Assembly (NCBI GenBank): GCA_016929465.1
Contig: JAFGIT010000265.1
Location: forward strand, 1 to 6,631
Length of the DNA: 6,631 bases
Direction: 5' to 3'
Source: JAFGIT01 sp016929465 [NCBI: Candidatus Coatesbacteria bacterium]
Lineage (GTDB): Bacteria > B130-G9
This document shows positions 1,127 to 6,631 of this stretch, in pieces. How positions within the stretch are numbered: position 1 is the stretch's first letter; every line of letters starts with the position of its first letter. Under the pieces are notes generated by a model, which did not search any database, was not told the origin of the DNA, and was given only the letters and a program-made list of their open reading frames with translations. The position numbers were made by a program, and so were the translations under genes.

Positions 1127-3007
1127 ATGACAGAATCCCAACCACTTGTGTCTGCAGCCGTGGTGAATTTCAACGGAATGTCGCACCTCGATACCTGTCT
1201 GAAATCACTTGTTGCTCAGACCTACCCGAACCTGGAGATCCTTGTTTCAGATGATTCATCAACTGACGAGTCTGTCGAATTCATTCGCTCGAAATTCCCA
1301 TCTGTGAAGGTGGTACAGAATCCTCGGAATATGGGCTTCGTGGCAACCGCCAACCGAGCGATGCAGAGCGGGAGCGCTGATTGGGTGCTTCTTCTGAATA
1401 ACGATGTCGAATGTGAGCCAGATTTTGTTGAGCGCCTTATGGCATCCGCGATGGCCAATCCGGACGTCGGCATGTTTGCGCCGAAAATGAGGCTGTTTTA
1501 TGCACGGACCGTGCTGAATGGAGTTGGCAACGAGATGTGTAAATCGTGCTATGGCGTTGACAGGGGGCAAGGCGAGAAGGACGAGGGGCAGTATGACGAG
1601 CCATGCGAGGTCTTCGGAGCTTGTGGCGGGGCGATGCTTGCAAAGAAGGAAGTGCTGGAGCAAGTCCGGTACATGGATAAGGCCATCTACTTCCTCTTCG
1701 ACGACATCGATCTCAGCTGGAGGGCCAGGATTCTCGGTACACGCATCCTGTCCGTTCCTGACGCGGTCATATACCACAAATTCGGGGGTTTCTACGGCAA
1801 GGTCTCGACCTTCAAATACTTCCTCTCTTCCAAGAACCGAATGAGGTCATTCCTCAAAAATTACGAGTTGAAGACTATTCTGGGGCTCCTGCCCGAGATG
1901 CTCAAGGAGGACTTCCATCAGATCAGGGGAATGTATAAGCTCAAAATCCCGTCAAGGAGCGGGATCACAAAGGCAATTGTCAAATCCTACCTCTGGAACG
2001 TCCTACATCTGCCGGGCACACTCATTGAGAGACGCAGGGTGCAGAAGTCGCGCGTTGTTAGTGATGAGGCCCTGAAAAAATTCATCTTCCAGGGGCCGGG
2101 AAGAATGCCTGTCGTGCTTCCGTCCTACGACGCAGTTGACCTCGACCTGTTCAGGAAAAAGAACGTCCAATCGGACCGGATTGTAATGGGCCTGTCGGAC
2201 GAGGATAGTCTGGGGCCCGGTTGGGATTCAGCCCTGAATGATAACGGTGAAGCGGCGCATCACAGGACTTGCACGAAACGATCTTATTTTTACCTTCGGC
2301 TGCTGTCCGACTCAAAACGTTGGCTCAATATACGTGCTCGAGGGGTCCCGATAGCGATCTCGGGCAACCTCACCATCAACGGTCAATTCGTCGGAGGATT
2401 CGATGTCCCGGTGGGGGAGGGGAGGATGTTGTCGTTCGAAATCCCACAATCGCTCAAGGAGCAGGATGTCCTCGAGTGCATCCTGGAGCTCGATAAGACA
2501 TGGCGCCCGATTGACTATTTCCCCGGATTCGATAACAGGCCACTCGGGATCAATATCTACGAGATCAGCCTCGATGAAGTGCCCACACGCCTTGCTGACC
2601 GAGGCATAGCATACGCAATTGGCCCGCCGGCGTTCGGCGAAATCAAAAAGGTCCTCGTTTTACGCTCTGCTCGGCCGAATTTCTGCATTGTAGCTCTGCG
2701 CGGAATTAAGAGGGAGCTCCCATCAGCGGAGATCTCGCTCTTGCTGCAACAAGGTGCCGAAAAAGGACCCTATGAATCGCTCGTTTCTAGAATCATAGAT
2801 TATCCGGGCCAGGCCCTATCCACGAAGGTGGCCGGCAAGGAGATCCTGAATCGACTCGCGTCAGAAGGCTTCGATCTCTGCGTAGTCATTTACGGTCAAA
2901 TGCCCAGGTCGTCCTATAAGCGGGTAGAGCAGTTGGCGAAAGCGACTGGTGCACATCATCTGATTGGCATACCTCCCGAAGGCAAGCCTTTCATCCTTGC
3001 TGGCTGA
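1127..3007 (+). CDS. GT2 family glycosyltransferase (WbbL/rhamnosyltransferase-like) with beta-sandwich and GT9-half-like C-terminal regions
   Basis: This protein has 626 residues from the ATG at 1127; single-domain GT2 enzymes are usually about 300. Residues 7-300 form a GT-A domain of the WbbL-like group. It has SDDSSTD at 41-47 (nucleotide binding), NND at 91-93 in the DXD position, FGACGGAML at 163-171, FDDIDLSWR at 191-199 (likely catalytic acidic residues) and YHKFGG at 216-221. A basic helical linker with ERRRVQKSR at 301-309 follows. Residues about 363-482 look like an all-beta domain, with GW at 365-366, RW at 398-399, TWRP at 458-461 and DNRPLGINI at 469-477. Residues about 506-615 begin IKKVLVLRS and resemble the N-terminal Rossmann half of GT9 heptosyltransferases, but without the usual GD after the first strand. 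I see no membrane span. Probable role: cytoplasmic, membrane-associated sugar transfer to a surface-glycan intermediate. Sugar specificity is unknown. Confidence 0.88.
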   Translation: MTESQPLVSAAVVNFNGMSHLDTCLKSLVAQTYPNLEILVSDDSSTDESVEFIRSKFPSVKVVQNPRNMGFVATANRAMQSGSADWVLLLNNDVECEPDFVERLMASAMANPDVGMFAPKMRLFYARTVLNGVGNEMCKSCYGVDRGQGEKDEGQYDEPCEVFGACGGAMLAKKEVLEQVRYMDKAIYFLFDDIDLSWRARILGTRILSVPDAVIYHKFGGFYGKVSTFKYFLSSKNRMRSFLKNYELKTILGLLPEMLKEDFHQIRGMYKLKIPSRSGITKAIVKSYLWNVLHLPGTLIERRRVQKSRVVSDEALKKFIFQGPGRMPVVLPSYDAVDLDLFRKKNVQSDRIVMGLSDEDSLGPGWDSALNDNGEAAHHRTCTKRSYFYLRLLSDSKRWLNIRARGVPIAISGNLTINGQFVGGFDVPVGEGRMLSFEIPQSLKEQDVLECILELDKTWRPIDYFPGFDNRPLGINIYEISLDEVPTRLADRGIAYAIGPPAFGEIKKVLVLRSARPNFCIVALRGIKRELPSAEISLLLQQGAEKGPYESLVSRIIDYPGQALSTKVAGKEILNRLASEGFDLCVVIYGQMPRSSYKRVEQLAKATGAHHLIGIPPEGKPFILAG

Positions 3008-3021
3008 CAACTAAGCCCTAT

Positions 3022-4542
3022 TTACTGGTCCAGTTCTGGATTTTCGGGTGATTTTGCATCACTGGCCCCAAAGACCCAGATTGCGAGCAAAAGGGCCACA
3101 GAAATAGTGAAGGCGCACAGAATCAGGAGAAACTCCCAGCTGGATCGGGCGAGCCTGCCGGCAAAGCCCCAGCGGCTGAACTGATGCGCAGGACCATCCT
3201 CGTTGAAATAGAGGATATCTCTGGCGCCAGCTCTCAGGGCAACCAGATCAATGTTCAAAAATCCTCGACCAGAGGCACCTCCACGAAGGACAATCGTGGT
3301 GTCGTAGCCACGTTTCCGTAATCTTCTGGCGAAGCTTCTGGGCATCGTTATTCCGCAGAATCTCCCTCTTCCCGGATAGGTTATCGGCCTGATCCCGTCT
3401 TCGGTGGGGATCGTATCCTCAAATCCCGGCATAACTAGCACATCGATCGCATTAGCGCCGAGCCCACTTCTAGCGTATTCGATAGCGGGGCTCAAGAGCC
3501 TTCCGGCCGATCGTATGATCAGGATTCTTCTACCTGTACTTGGCTCCCCGGCTGGGACGTCCCATTCACCTGGCTGTGCTTCCTTCGGTGGATAATACTC
3601 TTCATAGGGCCTAATCATCTGCTCGAGGTGCCCGGGGTCGACGCGTCGCATCGACTGAATGTGCCGCCTTGCCTTGAGCTGATAGGGCAACGCCTTCAGA
3701 GCTCCGAATCTCGCCTTGAGCAGTATCGAGGTTCTCCCCTCATCAAGAGCCTGAATGGAAGCCCTGAATTGTTGTCTCAGTATCGCTTTGATATTGCTCC
3801 GGAGTATCGGTCCGGGCAGGTTCTTTGCGAGGACCACGAGCTCATTCCGGATGAGCTGGAACTTGCGCATGTCGCTGAAGATGCCCGCCGTCGCAGTGCC
3901 AGTGTGATAGACGACCGAGCCGGGCACATAGATGCAGCGCCAGCCCGCTAGCTGCTCCCTGAAGCCCAGGTCTATGTCCTCATAGAACATGAACAGCTGC
4001 TCATCGAAGAGACCGATCTCGTCCAACATCGCTCTTCTATAGAGAGCGGCGCACGCGGATGCCGAAAAAACCCAGCCAGGCTCATCTCGCTGGCCTCGAT
4101 CAGTCTCCCCGGTCGCTATATTTCCGCCAAAGCCCTCGCGGCAGAAGAAATCGCCCGCGGCGTAGATCGTGTCACGCGGATCGTCCCACAGTATTTTGGA
4201 GGCCGCAGAGCCGGCATCCTGATGTGCATCCAACGCACCTAGCAGCCTGCTCAGCCAATCCGGCTCAACCTCCGTGTCGTTGTTGAGAATTGCGACGAAT
4301 TCGCCGCTCGTCGCTCTTATCCCGGCATTGACCGCCGTAGCGAAGCCGGCATTCTCTTCGAGTTGGATGACCCCGACCTCTGGATATTCGGCTCGAATGA
4401 ATTCAGCTGAGCCATCGGTAGAGGCGTCATCCACGACCAGGGCCTCGAAGTCCGAGAAATTCTGCCCAGCAAGGCTGTCCAGGCAGCGCTTCAGGAGCTG
4501 AATCCCGTTGTAGTTCGGAATAATGACGGCGACTCTAGCCAT
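3022..4542 (-). CDS. GT2 family glycosyltransferase with GT9-half-like region and C-terminal membrane anchor
   Basis: This 506-residue protein starts at an ATG (4542-4540) with a good ribosome binding site. Residues 1-240 form a GT-A domain: IIPNYNG at 7-13, VVDDASTD at 36-43, NND at 87-89 (DXD position), FYEDIDLGFR at 186-195 and YHTGTAT at 212-218. A basic helical linker covers about 245-310 (KARRHIQSMRR at 290-300). Residues 337-448 start GRRILIIRSAG and form a Rossmann-like region similar to the one ending the facing GT2 gene. The FLLILC...IWVFG stretch at 471-492 is a single hydrophobic span. Arginines precede it and an acidic tail follows, which fits a cytoplasmic enzyme anchored at its C-terminus. 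The gene converges on the 1127-3007 gene with a 14-bp gap and diverges from the membrane protein at 4649. It probably adds a sugar to a lipid-linked or surface-glycan intermediate; the donor is unknown. Confidence 0.88.
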   Translation of the reverse strand: MARVAVIIPNYNGIQLLKRCLDSLAGQNFSDFEALVVDDASTDGSAEFIRAEYPEVGVIQLEENAGFATAVNAGIRATSGEFVAILNNDTEVEPDWLSRLLGALDAHQDAGSAASKILWDDPRDTIYAAGDFFCREGFGGNIATGETDRGQRDEPGWVFSASACAALYRRAMLDEIGLFDEQLFMFYEDIDLGFREQLAGWRCIYVPGSVVYHTGTATAGIFSDMRKFQLIRNELVVLAKNLPGPILRSNIKAILRQQFRASIQALDEGRTSILLKARFGALKALPYQLKARRHIQSMRRVDPGHLEQMIRPYEEYYPPKEAQPGEWDVPAGEPSTGRRILIIRSAGRLLSPAIEYARSGLGANAIDVLVMPGFEDTIPTEDGIRPITYPGRGRFCGITMPRSFARRLRKRGYDTTIVLRGGASGRGFLNIDLVALRAGARDILYFNEDGPAHQFSRWGFAGRLARSSWEFLLILCAFTISVALLLAIWVFGASDAKSPENPELDQ

Positions 4543-4648: not shown

Positions 4649-6004
4649 TTGTCAGGCAGATCATTCTGGTTGAGGTTCATTCTGCTAGTCGCATCGTATG
4701 CAGTCCTTCATGTATTCGGGCTGCTCTTTTACGGGCTTTCGAGACCTTTTCTGAATGTGGCCCTGACGGCGATCCTCATGCTCCTCACCGTCACTCTGCT
4801 TCTATTAGGTCTGATTAAGCGGGCCGACAAGATGATCGATGCTGTGCGCCCGGGCAATGGTCTTCGATGGAGGATCTTGACGTGTGCGTTTGTCGCGTTG
4901 TCTGTCGTCTTCGCACCCAGCTGTCCCGCGATCAAAGCGGGGCTATCGCCGCTGGTGAGATTCCTCTTCCTCGTTCTCGTCGTTCTTCTCTGCTGGTTCT
5001 CATATAGAAGGACCACGGCCTTCGTCGGGCTCCTGGCTGCGCTTTCTATGATCTGCCGTGCCCCGATAGCAGCAGCTCCAATAGACCCGAACCATACTGA
5101 TATGCTCCCGCTCGTTCTTCTAGCGTGCAGGCGTTTTCTGTCGGGTGCCAGTCCCTATATGGATTACCTAATGCCCTGGAAGCTGCCGCTGACCTATCTG
5201 CCAGTCATCTGGCTGCCCTTCATACCTGCCGAGATATTCGGGCTCGATCCGAGGTGGCTTTCTGCGCTGTTCGGATGTCTGGCGGTTATCGTGCTCTTCC
5301 GAGCGTTCCCTGTTCTCGAGAGAGGGCCGTACGCGGGCGCGATGAAACTGCTCTTCGCAATGTTCATTTTTCTCAGCCTCGATCTGCAGTTTGGTCCCAC
5401 CACTCCTGAATCGGTATTCTGGCTGGCCTTGTCGCTTCTCGTGTTCTCGCTATCTCGGGATTCAGATCTCGGGACCGCTGTCGCGATGGGCGTCTGCCTG
5501 GCCACAAGACAACAGGCAGTGTTCCTGCTGCCCCTGCTTGTCATCTACTTCTTCAGGAGACTCGGGCGCCGCGAGGCTATGGTAAGCACAGCTCTTACGG
5601 TGGCGGTGCCTTTGGCTGTCTGCTTGCCGTTCTACATCGAATCGCCAATTCGGTTTTTCTCCGGCATTTACACCCGCTTCGGGAGATTCGCCCTTCAAAA
5701 GTGGATCAACGATCGAGTTTGGGAGGATGCTCTGTCATTCGCCCCCTTTTTCTACGAGCATGGTCTCCAACGCATTCTGACGCCCCTGGTGATTGCCTTG
5801 CAGCTTGTCCTCTATGGAATCGCGCTTCGCTGTCTGAAGGAGCTCTCAGGCCTTCTGTCCTTCATGGGGCTTTCGATGCTCCTGTTTCTCGTGCTTTCGC
5901 CGGTCATCTGGCCCTATATGTTCACGCCGCTCTCGATCCTGCTCGCGGCATCGGTTCTGAACGGGCTAAGTCCGCCTGAGAAGGGAACTCCTGAGACAGG
6001 CTAA
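4649..6004 (+). CDS. Polytopic membrane protein, probable GT-C glycosyltransferase (GT87/GT39-like)
   Basis: This 451-residue protein is strongly hydrophobic. About 12 membrane spans are visible by eye, for example near 7-29, 34-55, 103-117, 205-219, 231-246, 311-328, 374-396 and 400-438. The longest hydrophilic loop early in the protein (about 143-180) has DPNHTD at 146-151, then GASPYMDYLMPWKLPLTYLP at 166-185. In GT-C enzymes such a loop carries a catalytic acidic residue and a G-x-x-P-Y motif before a proline-rich entry to the next span. ATRQQAVFLLPLLVIY at 285-300 resembles the A-x-[RK]-Q...P...Y signature of GT87-like mannosyltransferases. GT-C enzymes use polyprenyl-phosphate sugars on the outer membrane face. 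It is transcribed divergently from the GT2 gene and overlaps the next gene tail to tail by 39 bp. O-antigen ligase or polymerase is less likely, because I see no large periplasmic loop late in the protein. The family call is tentative; the membrane topology is firm. Confidence 0.72.
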   Translation: MSGRSFWLRFILLVASYAVLHVFGLLFYGLSRPFLNVALTAILMLLTVTLLLLGLIKRADKMIDAVRPGNGLRWRILTCAFVALSVVFAPSCPAIKAGLSPLVRFLFLVLVVLLCWFSYRRTTAFVGLLAALSMICRAPIAAAPIDPNHTDMLPLVLLACRRFLSGASPYMDYLMPWKLPLTYLPVIWLPFIPAEIFGLDPRWLSALFGCLAVIVLFRAFPVLERGPYAGAMKLLFAMFIFLSLDLQFGPTTPESVFWLALSLLVFSLSRDSDLGTAVAMGVCLATRQQAVFLLPLLVIYFFRRLGRREAMVSTALTVAVPLAVCLPFYIESPIRFFSGIYTRFGRFALQKWINDRVWEDALSFAPFFYEHGLQRILTPLVIALQLVLYGIALRCLKELSGLLSFMGLSMLLFLVLSPVIWPYMFTPLSILLAASVLNGLSPPEKGTPETG

Positions 6005-6631
6005 ATCAGGATGGACGAGATCTCCGCGGTCGAGAAATGGCCGCTGATCGATCCACACGGAAGGGGAAGAGAGCACTAGGTCGGTGTGAGCATTCTTTGC
6101 CCCGAAGCCGATCCCAACAGTGACTGCGCCGAATACCCTCTCGTTGACCAGGATCGAATTGCCGAACTCGGCTGAGGGGTTCAATCCGAATGAGAAGTGC
6201 ATCAACTCCCGTGAGCCGCATCCGGCATTATGCTCGATCCATTTCTCGAGCCTCTTGCCAGCGTCCGTCTGCTCGACTCGCGTTACTCGCCCCGCTCTGA
6301 CTTCAATCTCGAACGGCTCTGCAAGAGGGCAATCCTGCTGAGGCGGGAACACGGCGGCATCGACTTTGAACCTACCATTGATGGACAACCTGATCGCGCT
6401 GAAAGAAATCTGGCCGGCAAGTGTGGAAAGAGTGCCAGCTTTCCGACAGAGGCCGGTGGGCTTGTCGAAAAACGAATTCAAGTAGCGTCTCAGCACGGGA
6501 GACCGCAACAGGTTTCGTGCCCATGGGGGCCCGAGCGAGGCCCAGAGCGCACAACCGCTGCCTGAAAAGAGCTCCATGTGGTGCGACCTGAGAAGCAGCT
6601 GGCGGACCCTATCACCAAGGGAGTGAACCGC
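5966..6631 (-). CDS. M29 / COG2309-like metalloenzyme (aminopeptidase T or NicX-type fold), 5'-truncated
   Basis: The frame is open from the window edge to a TAG at 5968-5966, giving 221 visible C-terminal residues. The Met encoded at 6577 is residue 19 and need not be the start; full-length relatives are roughly 340-410 residues. The order of motifs follows family M29: STLAGQISFSAI (69-80) for the PxGEV segment, INGRFKVDAAVF (84-95), the strand-rich FEIEVRAGRVTRVEQ (107-121), MHFSFGLNP (144-152), NERVFGAVTVGIG (163-175), NAHTDLVL (180-187) and a closing DRGDLV (201-206). Several expected aminopeptidase metal ligands are replaced: Q for Glu in GEV, H145 for the Glu before GxNP, and T171 for the His of the VHIA-type strand. 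H182 and D184 are kept. The remaining H, H, D set recalls the iron ligands of 2,5-dihydroxypyridine dioxygenase NicX, but that comparison is from memory. It is a soluble-looking enzyme with unknown substrate and no evident link to glycan synthesis. Confidence 0.65.
   Translation of the reverse strand, partial: AVHSLGDRVRQLLLRSHHMELFSGSGCALWASLGPPWARNLLRSPVLRRYLNSFFDKPTGLCRKAGTLSTLAGQISFSAIRLSINGRFKVDAAVFPPQQDCPLAEPFEIEVRAGRVTRVEQTDAGKRLEKWIEHNAGCGSRELMHFSFGLNPSAEFGNSILVNERVFGAVTVGIGFGAKNAHTDLVLSSPSVWIDQRPFLDRGDLVHPDLACLRSSLLRRT

What the first reader, a model, noticed from the sequence alone, without database searches (positions are those of the whole stretch)
2642..3534. Two convergent GT2 enzymes end in the same GT9-half-like Rossmann region
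Residues 506-615 of the plus-strand GT2 and 337-448 of the minus-strand GT2 share a pattern. Each has [KR]-x-[VI]-L-[VI]-[LI]-R-S-A at the start, a middle [IR]-x-[DT]-Y-P-G, then L-x-x-x-G-[FY]-D-x-x-[VI]-V and a closing G-A-x-x-[IL]. This looks like the acceptor-side half of ADP-heptose:LPS heptosyltransferases (GT9), without the GD usually seen after the first strand and without the donor-binding half. Fused to a complete GT2 domain it is unlikely to be a second full transferase. It may bind acceptor or act as a scaffold. The two genes may be diverged paralogues. This is the best candidate for an undescribed domain family in the window.
Basis: partly seen in the sequence, partly recalled or inferred. 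Interest (0 to 1): 0.62.

Follow-up and report, generated by a model that had tools for sequence, protein, structure and literature searches.

The report
Shared half-heptosyltransferase accessory domain
Two neighbouring sugar-transfer enzymes of an uncultured bacterium end in the same half of an old heptosyltransferase, stripped of its catalytic residue, and this uncatalogued half also turns up attached to quite different sugar and radical enzymes in other bacteria, so it probably serves as a shared recruiting module rather than as an enzyme.

Summary
Gene A (1127-3007, +) and gene B (3022-4542, -) are GT2 enzymes whose last ~120 residues are homologous. A profile built from B rows alone finds A. 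A GT9 profile matches both, in the GT9 N-terminal register. The five Coatesbacteria rows against GT9 give hhalign probability 97.6; seven control alignments stay under 4%. The "GD" Asp, the proposed catalytic base of heptosyltransferase I, is missing, and so is the donor half. Pfam and NCBIfam matched nothing over the domain above cut-off in the proteins scanned.

Beyond the finding: this half is a mobile accessory domain. Of 63 genes tallied in 24 genomes, 20 are standalone (16 with a membrane tail) and 43 fused, at either end, to GT2, GT4, radical SAM, FkbM or nucleotidyltransferase domains; 41 of 63 lie within 5 kb of another. In G230 a GT2 related to B's and a standalone half+TM are adjacent separate genes, a split form of gene B.

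Most likely (inferred): the old acceptor cleft binds a shared lipid-linked glycan, or partner enzymes, and gathers enzymes at the membrane. A and B being simple paralogues is not supported. New accessory family of a known fold; ligand unknown.

The parts
1127..3007 (+). Gene A: GT2 domain + beta-sandwich + GT9-N-like half domain (626 aa)
   Evidence: ORF; Pfam PF00535 residues 9-180, E 4.9e-23; orthologue in G003 66% identical over query residues 2-624
1142..1786 (+). GT2 catalytic domain of A (residues 6-220)
   Evidence: PF13641 and PF00535
2264..2575 (+). Middle beta-sandwich of A (residues ~380-483), carbohydrate-binding-module-like; tentative
   Evidence: AF2 model from 2 sequences, pLDDT 48-86 per block of 10 residues here; Foldseek best hits BcsB, CBM6/35/36
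2645..3001 (+). GT9-N-like half domain of A (residues 507-625)
   Evidence: Profile matches; GT9 profile match E 4.1e-4
3022..4542 (-). Gene B: GT2 domain + GT9-N-like half domain + C-terminal membrane helix (506 aa)
   Evidence: ORF; PF00535 residues 6-177, E 3.3e-33; orthologues in G003 and G001
4012..4527 (-). GT2 catalytic domain of B (residues 6-177)
   Evidence: PF00535
3169..3531 (-). GT9-N-like half domain of B (residues 338-458)
   Evidence: Profile matches; GT9 profile match E 1.1e-4; AF2 model mean pLDDT 80
3055..3174 (-). Long C-terminal helix of B (residues 457-496) holding a predicted membrane span
   Evidence: AF2 helix; best mean hydropathy of the tail 2.8 over 19 residues

Best explanation
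Shown by computation: the shared C-terminal region is homologous to the N-terminal (acceptor-side) Rossmann half of GT9 heptosyltransferases, lacks their catalytic Asp and has no donor half, and it is used as a mobile accessory domain on several enzyme classes, often in clusters with glycosyltransferases. Inferred: it is a recruitment module. Its former acceptor cleft, where the conserved residues sit (R-S after strand 1, Y-N after strand 4, G-Y before the last helix), holds a shared ligand, most likely a lipid-linked glycan or precursor. The membrane-anchored copies (standalone half+TM, or gene B itself) keep that ligand, and the enzymes bearing a copy, together at the inner membrane. In the window, B would be the membrane-anchored GT2 and A a soluble GT2 that also carries a putative sugar-binding sandwich.
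For: GT9 origin. With the 43-row profile a GT9 structure was the top hit among 177,635 PDB sequences (3tov E 1.5e-4), 1psw third (0.006), with PnsB1, itself a GT9 homologue, between them. No catalytic Asp: GD in 1 of 48 half domains against 27 of 30 GT9 by a strict pattern; of the 3 misses printed, two read GD and one AD by eye. That Asp is D13 of heptosyltransferase I (numbering; role from passages of PMC5713226). Fused to unrelated catalytic domains at either end, or standalone, and clustered. Standalone copies carry a membrane tail in 16 of 20 cases, fused copies have a membrane stretch after the half in 7 of 43. Split form of B in G230: the stop of the GT2 gene and the ATG of half+TM are three bases apart, that GT2 falling in a group with B's (SH-aLRT 93). 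Conserved non-aliphatic residues concentrate after the strands: 6 of the top 10 in a zone of 16 of 118 positions, p 4e-4 (zone drawn after seeing the list). [quoted passage not shown]
Against: No ligand or partner is known. Six genomes show only radical SAM+half and no membrane-anchored copy was found there (G065, G135, G149, G211, G272, G286), though incomplete genomes and remote copies could explain this. B lives without A in G001. In window B some of the commonest cleft residues differ (M for Q371, P for Y390, R-G for Y420-N421), so a single shared ligand is doubtful. Conserved cleft residues could equally form a protein interface. The group of GT2s near B also holds four from G027, G023 and G054 whose fetched loci show no half domain, so the GT2 type does not require it.
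Confidence: 0.45

Rival explanations
1. Pure protein docking: the halves pair with one another (or with the standalone membrane-anchored half) and so assemble the enzymes; the cleft has lost any ligand role. As in the chloroplast subunit PnsB1, which matches a GT9 profile over most of that profile's length and is a subunit of a membrane complex, the fold would serve as structure.
For: Clusters with several copies, standalone copies mostly anchored, split and fused forms of GT2-half-TM. PnsB1 matches a GT9 profile at E 1.1e-11 and contacts several NDH subunits (passages of PMC12170339).
Against: The most conserved non-aliphatic residues sit mostly at the strand ends of the cleft. In several genomes only one copy was found. 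G001 has B without A.
Confidence: 0.33
2. A second catalytic activity: the half works with another protein's donor half (split GT9), or has gained a new chemistry.
For: The domain keeps a conserved cleft edge.
Against: GD absent in 47 of 48. None of the 37 loci examined holds a GT9 C-half-only gene; two hold a full GT9. Partners are enzymes of other classes with their own catalytic domains.
Confidence: 0.08
3. A degenerate remnant: halves of ancestral GT9 genes caught in fusions and kept as inert linkers or tails.
For: The half evolves faster than GT2 (A against its G003 orthologue: 50% in the C-terminal piece, against 75% in GT2). Long branches.
Against: R and S kept at weighted frequencies of 93% and 85% across 48 divergent copies, repeated use with unrelated enzymes at both ends, and standalone genes are not what decay gives.
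Confidence: 0.1

Closest known systems
GT9 ADP-heptose:LPS heptosyltransferases (HepI/WaaC, HepII/WaaF)
   Same: Homologous N-terminal Rossmann half, same register; B model fits the N half of 1psw (Z 8.4, 99 residues, 2.4 A)
   Different: No GD (catalytic Asp13 of HepI), no donor-binding C half, fused to other enzymes
GT2 glycosyltransferases
   Same: Both window genes have a GT2 domain over the Pfam cut-off
   Different: Extra C-terminal modules, without a Pfam or NCBIfam match above cut-off
RiPP recognition element (RRE, PqqD-like)
   Same: Alike in pattern: small domain, discrete or fused to the N or C end of varied modifying enzymes; radical SAM neighbours and GT fusions are mentioned (passages of PMC7470986)
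   Different: Different fold (alternating beta-alpha here; three helices and a three-stranded sheet in RRE), glycosyltransferase-rich neighbours, no precursor peptide looked for
PnsB1 of the chloroplast NDH complex
   Same: GT9 homologue (E 1.1e-11) used as a subunit of a membrane complex (passages of PMC12170339)
   Different: Match covers most of the GT9 profile, in a plant electron-transfer complex; not a half domain fused to enzymes

Membership tests
GT9 glycosyltransferase | Homologous N-terminal Rossmann domain | tested here: met
   GT9 profile hits 30 of 48 half domains at E<0.01 (31 of 49 before removing a GT9 fragment), 0 of 294 decoys; window A 4.1e-4, B 1.1e-4 (database of 343 sequences)
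GT9 glycosyltransferase | Catalytic Asp in the GD motif after strand 1 | tested here: not met
   Absent in A and B; 1 of 48 half domains has GD
GT9 glycosyltransferase | C-terminal donor-binding half (Pfam PF01075) | tested here: not met
   No PF01075 match in A or B; no C-half-only gene in 37 loci
GT9 glycosyltransferase | GT9 fold by structure comparison | tested here: inconclusive
   1psw third by VIA-align (Z 8.4) but tied with unrelated Rossmann folds
GT2 glycosyltransferase | PF00535 domain over its cut-off | tested here: met
   A 82.3 bits, B 115.4 bits, cut-off 23.3
GT2 glycosyltransferase | Transfer activity | not testable with these tools
   Acidic motifs present by eye (NND, DDIDL/EDIDL) in both
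RRE-type recognition domain | Discrete or fused to varied modifying enzymes | tested here: met
   20 standalone, 43 fused of 63
RRE-type recognition domain | PqqD-like fold (three helices, then a three-stranded sheet) | tested here: not met
   B model is alternating beta-alpha
RRE-type recognition domain | Binds a leader peptide | not tested
   No precursor peptide search was made

The most novel reading that the evidence does not exclude
A GT9-derived, non-catalytic recruitment domain plays, for glycan or glycolipid assembly in little-known bacterial lineages, the part that RRE domains play for peptide natural products: a membrane-anchored copy holds a shared lipid-linked substrate, and glycosyltransferases, B12-type and SPASM radical SAM enzymes, methyltransferases and nucleotidyltransferases carrying the same domain modify it in turn. 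This would mark a hidden class of radical-SAM-tailored surface glycans.
Probability: 0.3. Interest if true: 0.82.

Novelty: new variant of a known kind. Interest (0 to 1): 0.62.

Why it matters
An unlisted domain shared by GT2, GT4, radical SAM, FkbM and nucleotidyltransferase enzymes gives a handle to find whole glycan-modifying clusters that annotation now treats as unrelated genes, many with radical SAM chemistry. It would also be a clear case of an enzyme half turned into an accessory module, with a simple prediction (what does the old acceptor cleft bind?) that can be tested on a 120-residue protein.

Tried and rejected
Direct BLASTP of the two C-termini: nothing; orthologues were needed. 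PDB search with the 3-row B profile: only two hits at E 0.23, neither GT9; with 12 rows 3tov appeared second (E 0.01), with 43 rows first. Foldseek with the B model gave a crowd of Rossmann proteins and no GT9 in the 50 rows shown. The A model is too poor (pLDDT 54) to test its half domain; the rows shown by Foldseek are led by beta-sandwich proteins.

Split GT9 (donor half encoded elsewhere in the cluster): no C-half-only gene in 37 loci (one of these loci, L135, holds no half domain). Simple A/B duplication: not supported, not excluded by the half domains. An artefact of frameshifted GT9 genes: rejected for the window, because A ends within about ten residues of its G003 orthologue and B has orthologues of nearly the same length in G003 and G001.

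Controls that did not work: the GT2 and NAD-epimerase control alignments could not be built, and four of the seven used are thin (one or two hits besides the query: GT4 N part, nucleotidyltransferase, FkbM, methyltransferase).

Looking for close relatives: GTDB contigs gave one record, Candidatus Coatesbacteria B130_G9, the same contig as G003. Plasmid records gave none for two half-domain queries.

Is it in print? Full-text searches with 'heptosyltransferase / radical SAM / glycosyltransferase / domain of unknown function / standalone' (at least 4 of 5: 2 papers, one seen as listing only, the RRE-Finder paper in passages), 'glycosyltransferase family 9 / N-terminal domain / fused / radical SAM' (0) and 'PnsB1 / glycosyltransferase' (1, by its title about seagrass genomes) found no description. 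Only open-access papers were searched. 'heptosyltransferase / Asp13 / catalytic base' gave none.

Rows dropped or changed: L104 (a GT9 fragment) was taken out of the half-domain set; duplicate ORFs of one gene in overlapping loci were merged; five of the 48 rows were left out of the 43-row alignment A7. In the typed table I had set two N-terminal fusions (L137:5516-7222, L142:10335-13142) to 'no membrane tail' although one search flagged them; one search shows a clear hydrophobic stretch between half and next domain in both, so the fused count is 7 of 43, not the 5 printed. Two partners called 'unknown' there are a weak radical SAM (below cut-off) and a GT4.
Full report
What is in the window. 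The window is the whole contig C407 of a 3.19 Mb draft genome. The nearest named record, which is the same 5,448-base contig as that of relative G003, is a Candidatus Coatesbacteria genome. Genes: a GT4 glycosyltransferase with TPR repeats, cut by the contig start (1-1125, +); gene A (1127-3007, +); gene B (3022-4542, -); a probably membrane-spanning protein with only a sub-cut-off ALG3 match (4649-6004, +); and a gene of unknown family running off the end (5966-6631, -). In G003 the order A, B, membrane protein, end gene is kept. In G001 the same neighbourhood has B but no A between B and the GT4-TPR gene, and no A orthologue was found elsewhere in G001 (best match 154.6 bits against 951 for the G003 orthologue).

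The observation. Both A and B begin with a GT2 domain. A then has about 170 residues, part of which is predicted as a beta-sandwich resembling BcsB and CBM6/35/36 modules (two-sequence alignment, so tentative), and then the region in question. B goes from GT2 almost directly into that region and then into a membrane helix. The two end regions are homologous. A profile of three B rows finds A at E 2.2e-4 in the window's genome and at 2.2e-7 in G003. phmmer with B finds A (2.6e-4 among 346 ORFs); with A it finds the B of G003 and G001 but not the window's own B. Plain BLASTP of the two pieces finds nothing.

GT9 origin. I built a GT9 profile from 30 proteins out of loci selected by Pfam PF01075; they were confirmed with a first GT9 profile that did include proteins picked up by the half-domain search, so the independence is not complete. 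It matches 30 of 48 half domains at E<0.01 (31 of 49 before a GT9 fragment was removed) and 0 of 294 shuffled or reversed decoys, in the N-terminal part of GT9; window B gets 1.1e-4 and window A 4.1e-4 in this set of 343 sequences; 18 of 48 half domains are not reached at that level. hhalign gives probability 98.8 for all 48 rows and 97.6 for the five Coatesbacteria rows alone against GT9. Seven control alignments (GT4 whole and N part, radical SAM, B12, nucleotidyltransferase, FkbM, another methyltransferase) stay under 7% and under 4% respectively; four of them are thin, and GT2 and epimerase controls could not be built. Against 177,635 PDB sequences the 43-row profile ranks the GT9 structure 3tov first (E 1.5e-4), PnsB1 second (0.0056) and 1psw third (0.006). 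The AF2 model of the B region (pLDDT 80 from four sequences) aligns with the N half of 1psw at Z 8.4, 2.4 A over 99 residues, but other Rossmann proteins score as well (up to Z 9.8), so the fold alone would not decide.

What is lost. In HepI the loop after strand 1 reads KTSSMGD, with the D at residue 13. [quoted passage not shown] Half domains mostly read RS in place of KT (R 93%, S 85%, weighted) and have no GD in 47 of 48. Of 30 GT9 of the PF01075 set, 27 have it by a strict pattern, and of the three misses printed two also read GD and one AD; of 26 GT9 picked mainly through the half profile, 24 have it and two read GN. No donor half follows, and 37 loci (36 with a half domain) hold no separate GT9 C-half gene, only two full GT9. 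The half is therefore very unlikely to be a transferase. PF01075 starts well inside GT9 genes (for example about 69 residues after the start of the half-profile match in G206 C24), which may explain why Pfam is blind to the half.

Where else it occurs. Profile searches over 386 genomes mix full GT9s and half domains. Sorting by architecture gives half domains in 21 of 386 genomes. This is a lower bound, since the match lists were cut. Five more genomes came from a 19-genome search of G286's phylum, three of them in the tally below. Among 63 genes in 24 genomes (with two 'unknown' partners resolved) there are 20 standalone and 43 fused. The fused ones are: radical SAM of the B12 kind with the half at the C end, 15; SPASM-type radical SAM with the half at the N end, 5, plus one weak radical SAM (below Pfam's cut-off); GT2, 7 C and 1 N; GT4, 8 C and 3 N; half+GT2+B12+radical SAM in one 936-residue chain, 1; FkbM, 1; nucleotidyltransferase, 1. 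Twenty fused proteins, including one (L111) outside the tally, were scanned with Pfam, two more; the other classes rest on profiles made here. For the B12 kind, Pfam's B12-binding domain was over cut-off in one of the four C-end radical SAM fusions scanned (below it in one, absent in two, one of them partial). The best NCBIfam match is HpnJ for L134:10108-11889 and L213:7770-9527, and a RiPP C-methyltransferase subfamily for L127:10281-12236, all below cut-off. Of the 63 genes, 41 lie within 5 kb of another half-domain gene. The 24 genomes were chosen because they hit, so these are descriptive counts. By a crude hydropathy rule, standalone copies have a hydrophobic tail in 16 of 20 cases and fused ones have such a stretch after the half in 7 of 43 (one search printed 5, see Tried and rejected). 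In the proteins scanned Pfam and NCBIfam have nothing above cut-off over the domain itself; the nearest is one TIGR02201 heptosyltransferase match of 18.4 bits against a cut-off of 170.2.

Gene B has a split form. In G230 a GT2 gene is followed by a standalone half+TM gene on the same strand, three bases between stop and ATG. In a quick GT2 tree that GT2 and a GT2 beside another half+TM (G396) fall in groups with the B clade (SH-aLRT 93 and 90), while A's GT2 lies elsewhere. These groups also hold four GT2s of G027, G023 and G054 whose fetched loci show no half domain. A clade of just B and the two half neighbours is not the best tree but is not rejected (AU p 0.414). B therefore looks like a fusion of a GT2/half-TM pair, which is the usual sign that the two parts work together. 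A acquired a half separately, or A and B have diverged past recognition: joining their GT2s costs 32 log units (AU p 0.062), while the half-domain tree cannot say (p 0.525).

Conserved face. Weighted conservation over 48 half domains puts the strongest non-aliphatic positions at Y428, R344, S345, Y420, F395, Y413, Q371, N421, D414, Y390 and G427 (B numbering, commonest residue). Six of the top ten fall within four residues after strands 1-4 (16 of 118 positions, p 4e-4; 5 of the top 8, p 0.001; 6 of the top 12, p 0.001). The zone was drawn after seeing the list, so the p values are optimistic. That is the edge where Rossmann-type domains bind ligands (recalled). B itself departs at several of these (M371, P390, R420, G421).

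How it probably works. Shown: homology, loss of the catalytic Asp and donor half, mobile accessory use, frequent membrane anchoring of standalone copies, split and fused forms, a conserved cleft edge. Inferred: the cleft binds a common substrate, most plausibly a lipid-linked glycan or precursor, and copies on different enzymes bring them to it at the membrane. The nearest known way of working is the RRE domain of peptide natural products, discrete or fused to modifying enzymes (passages of PMC7470986), though fold and context differ. The main rival is protein-protein docking; PnsB1, which matches a GT9 profile and is a subunit of the chloroplast NDH complex (passages of PMC12170339), shows that this fold can serve as a complex subunit. 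Against a strict anchor model, six genomes show only radical SAM+half.

Verdict. The finding is real and wider than reported. The fold is known and the use is new, as far as the searched libraries and open-access papers show. Function stays a hypothesis.

Noticed in passing
PDB chains 7eu3_6, 7wff_a, 9grx_1: PnsB1, a subunit of the chloroplast NDH complex, matches a bacterial GT9 profile over most of its length (profile positions about 20-303 of 349, E 1.1e-11 to 2.1e-9). One full-text search found no paper that says so.
   Followed up: partly
L199:4450-5166, L200:2597-3172, L201:7035-7802 (G000 C172, G001 C58, G002 C236): A third, standalone half domain in Coatesbacteria, without the R-S motif, kept beside a ParA-like P-loop gene (sub-cut-off Pfam match in the G001 copy) and pyruvate:ferredoxin-oxidoreductase-type genes.
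   Followed up: partly
L142:10335-13142 (G259 C24): One 936-residue chain carries half domain, a membrane stretch, GT2, B12-binding and radical SAM domains.
   Followed up: no
L136:12753-14566 (G135 C93): A radical SAM+half gene appears as two overlapping open frames, probably a frameshift or assembly error.
   Followed up: no
window 5966-6631 (-); full-length copy L041:852-1895: Gene conserved next to the cluster in G001 and G003; the 348-residue G001 copy has no Pfam match at E 0.01.
   Followed up: no
window 4649-6004 (+): Conserved hydrophobic, probably multi-span membrane protein divergent from B, only a sub-cut-off ALG3 match; possibly a GT-C type lipid-linked sugar transferase.
   Followed up: no
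L134:10108-14179 (G295): A compact three-gene run: radical SAM+half, half+TM, radical SAM+half; of the two radical SAM genes the first was scanned and is closest to HpnJ, below cut-off.
   Followed up: partly
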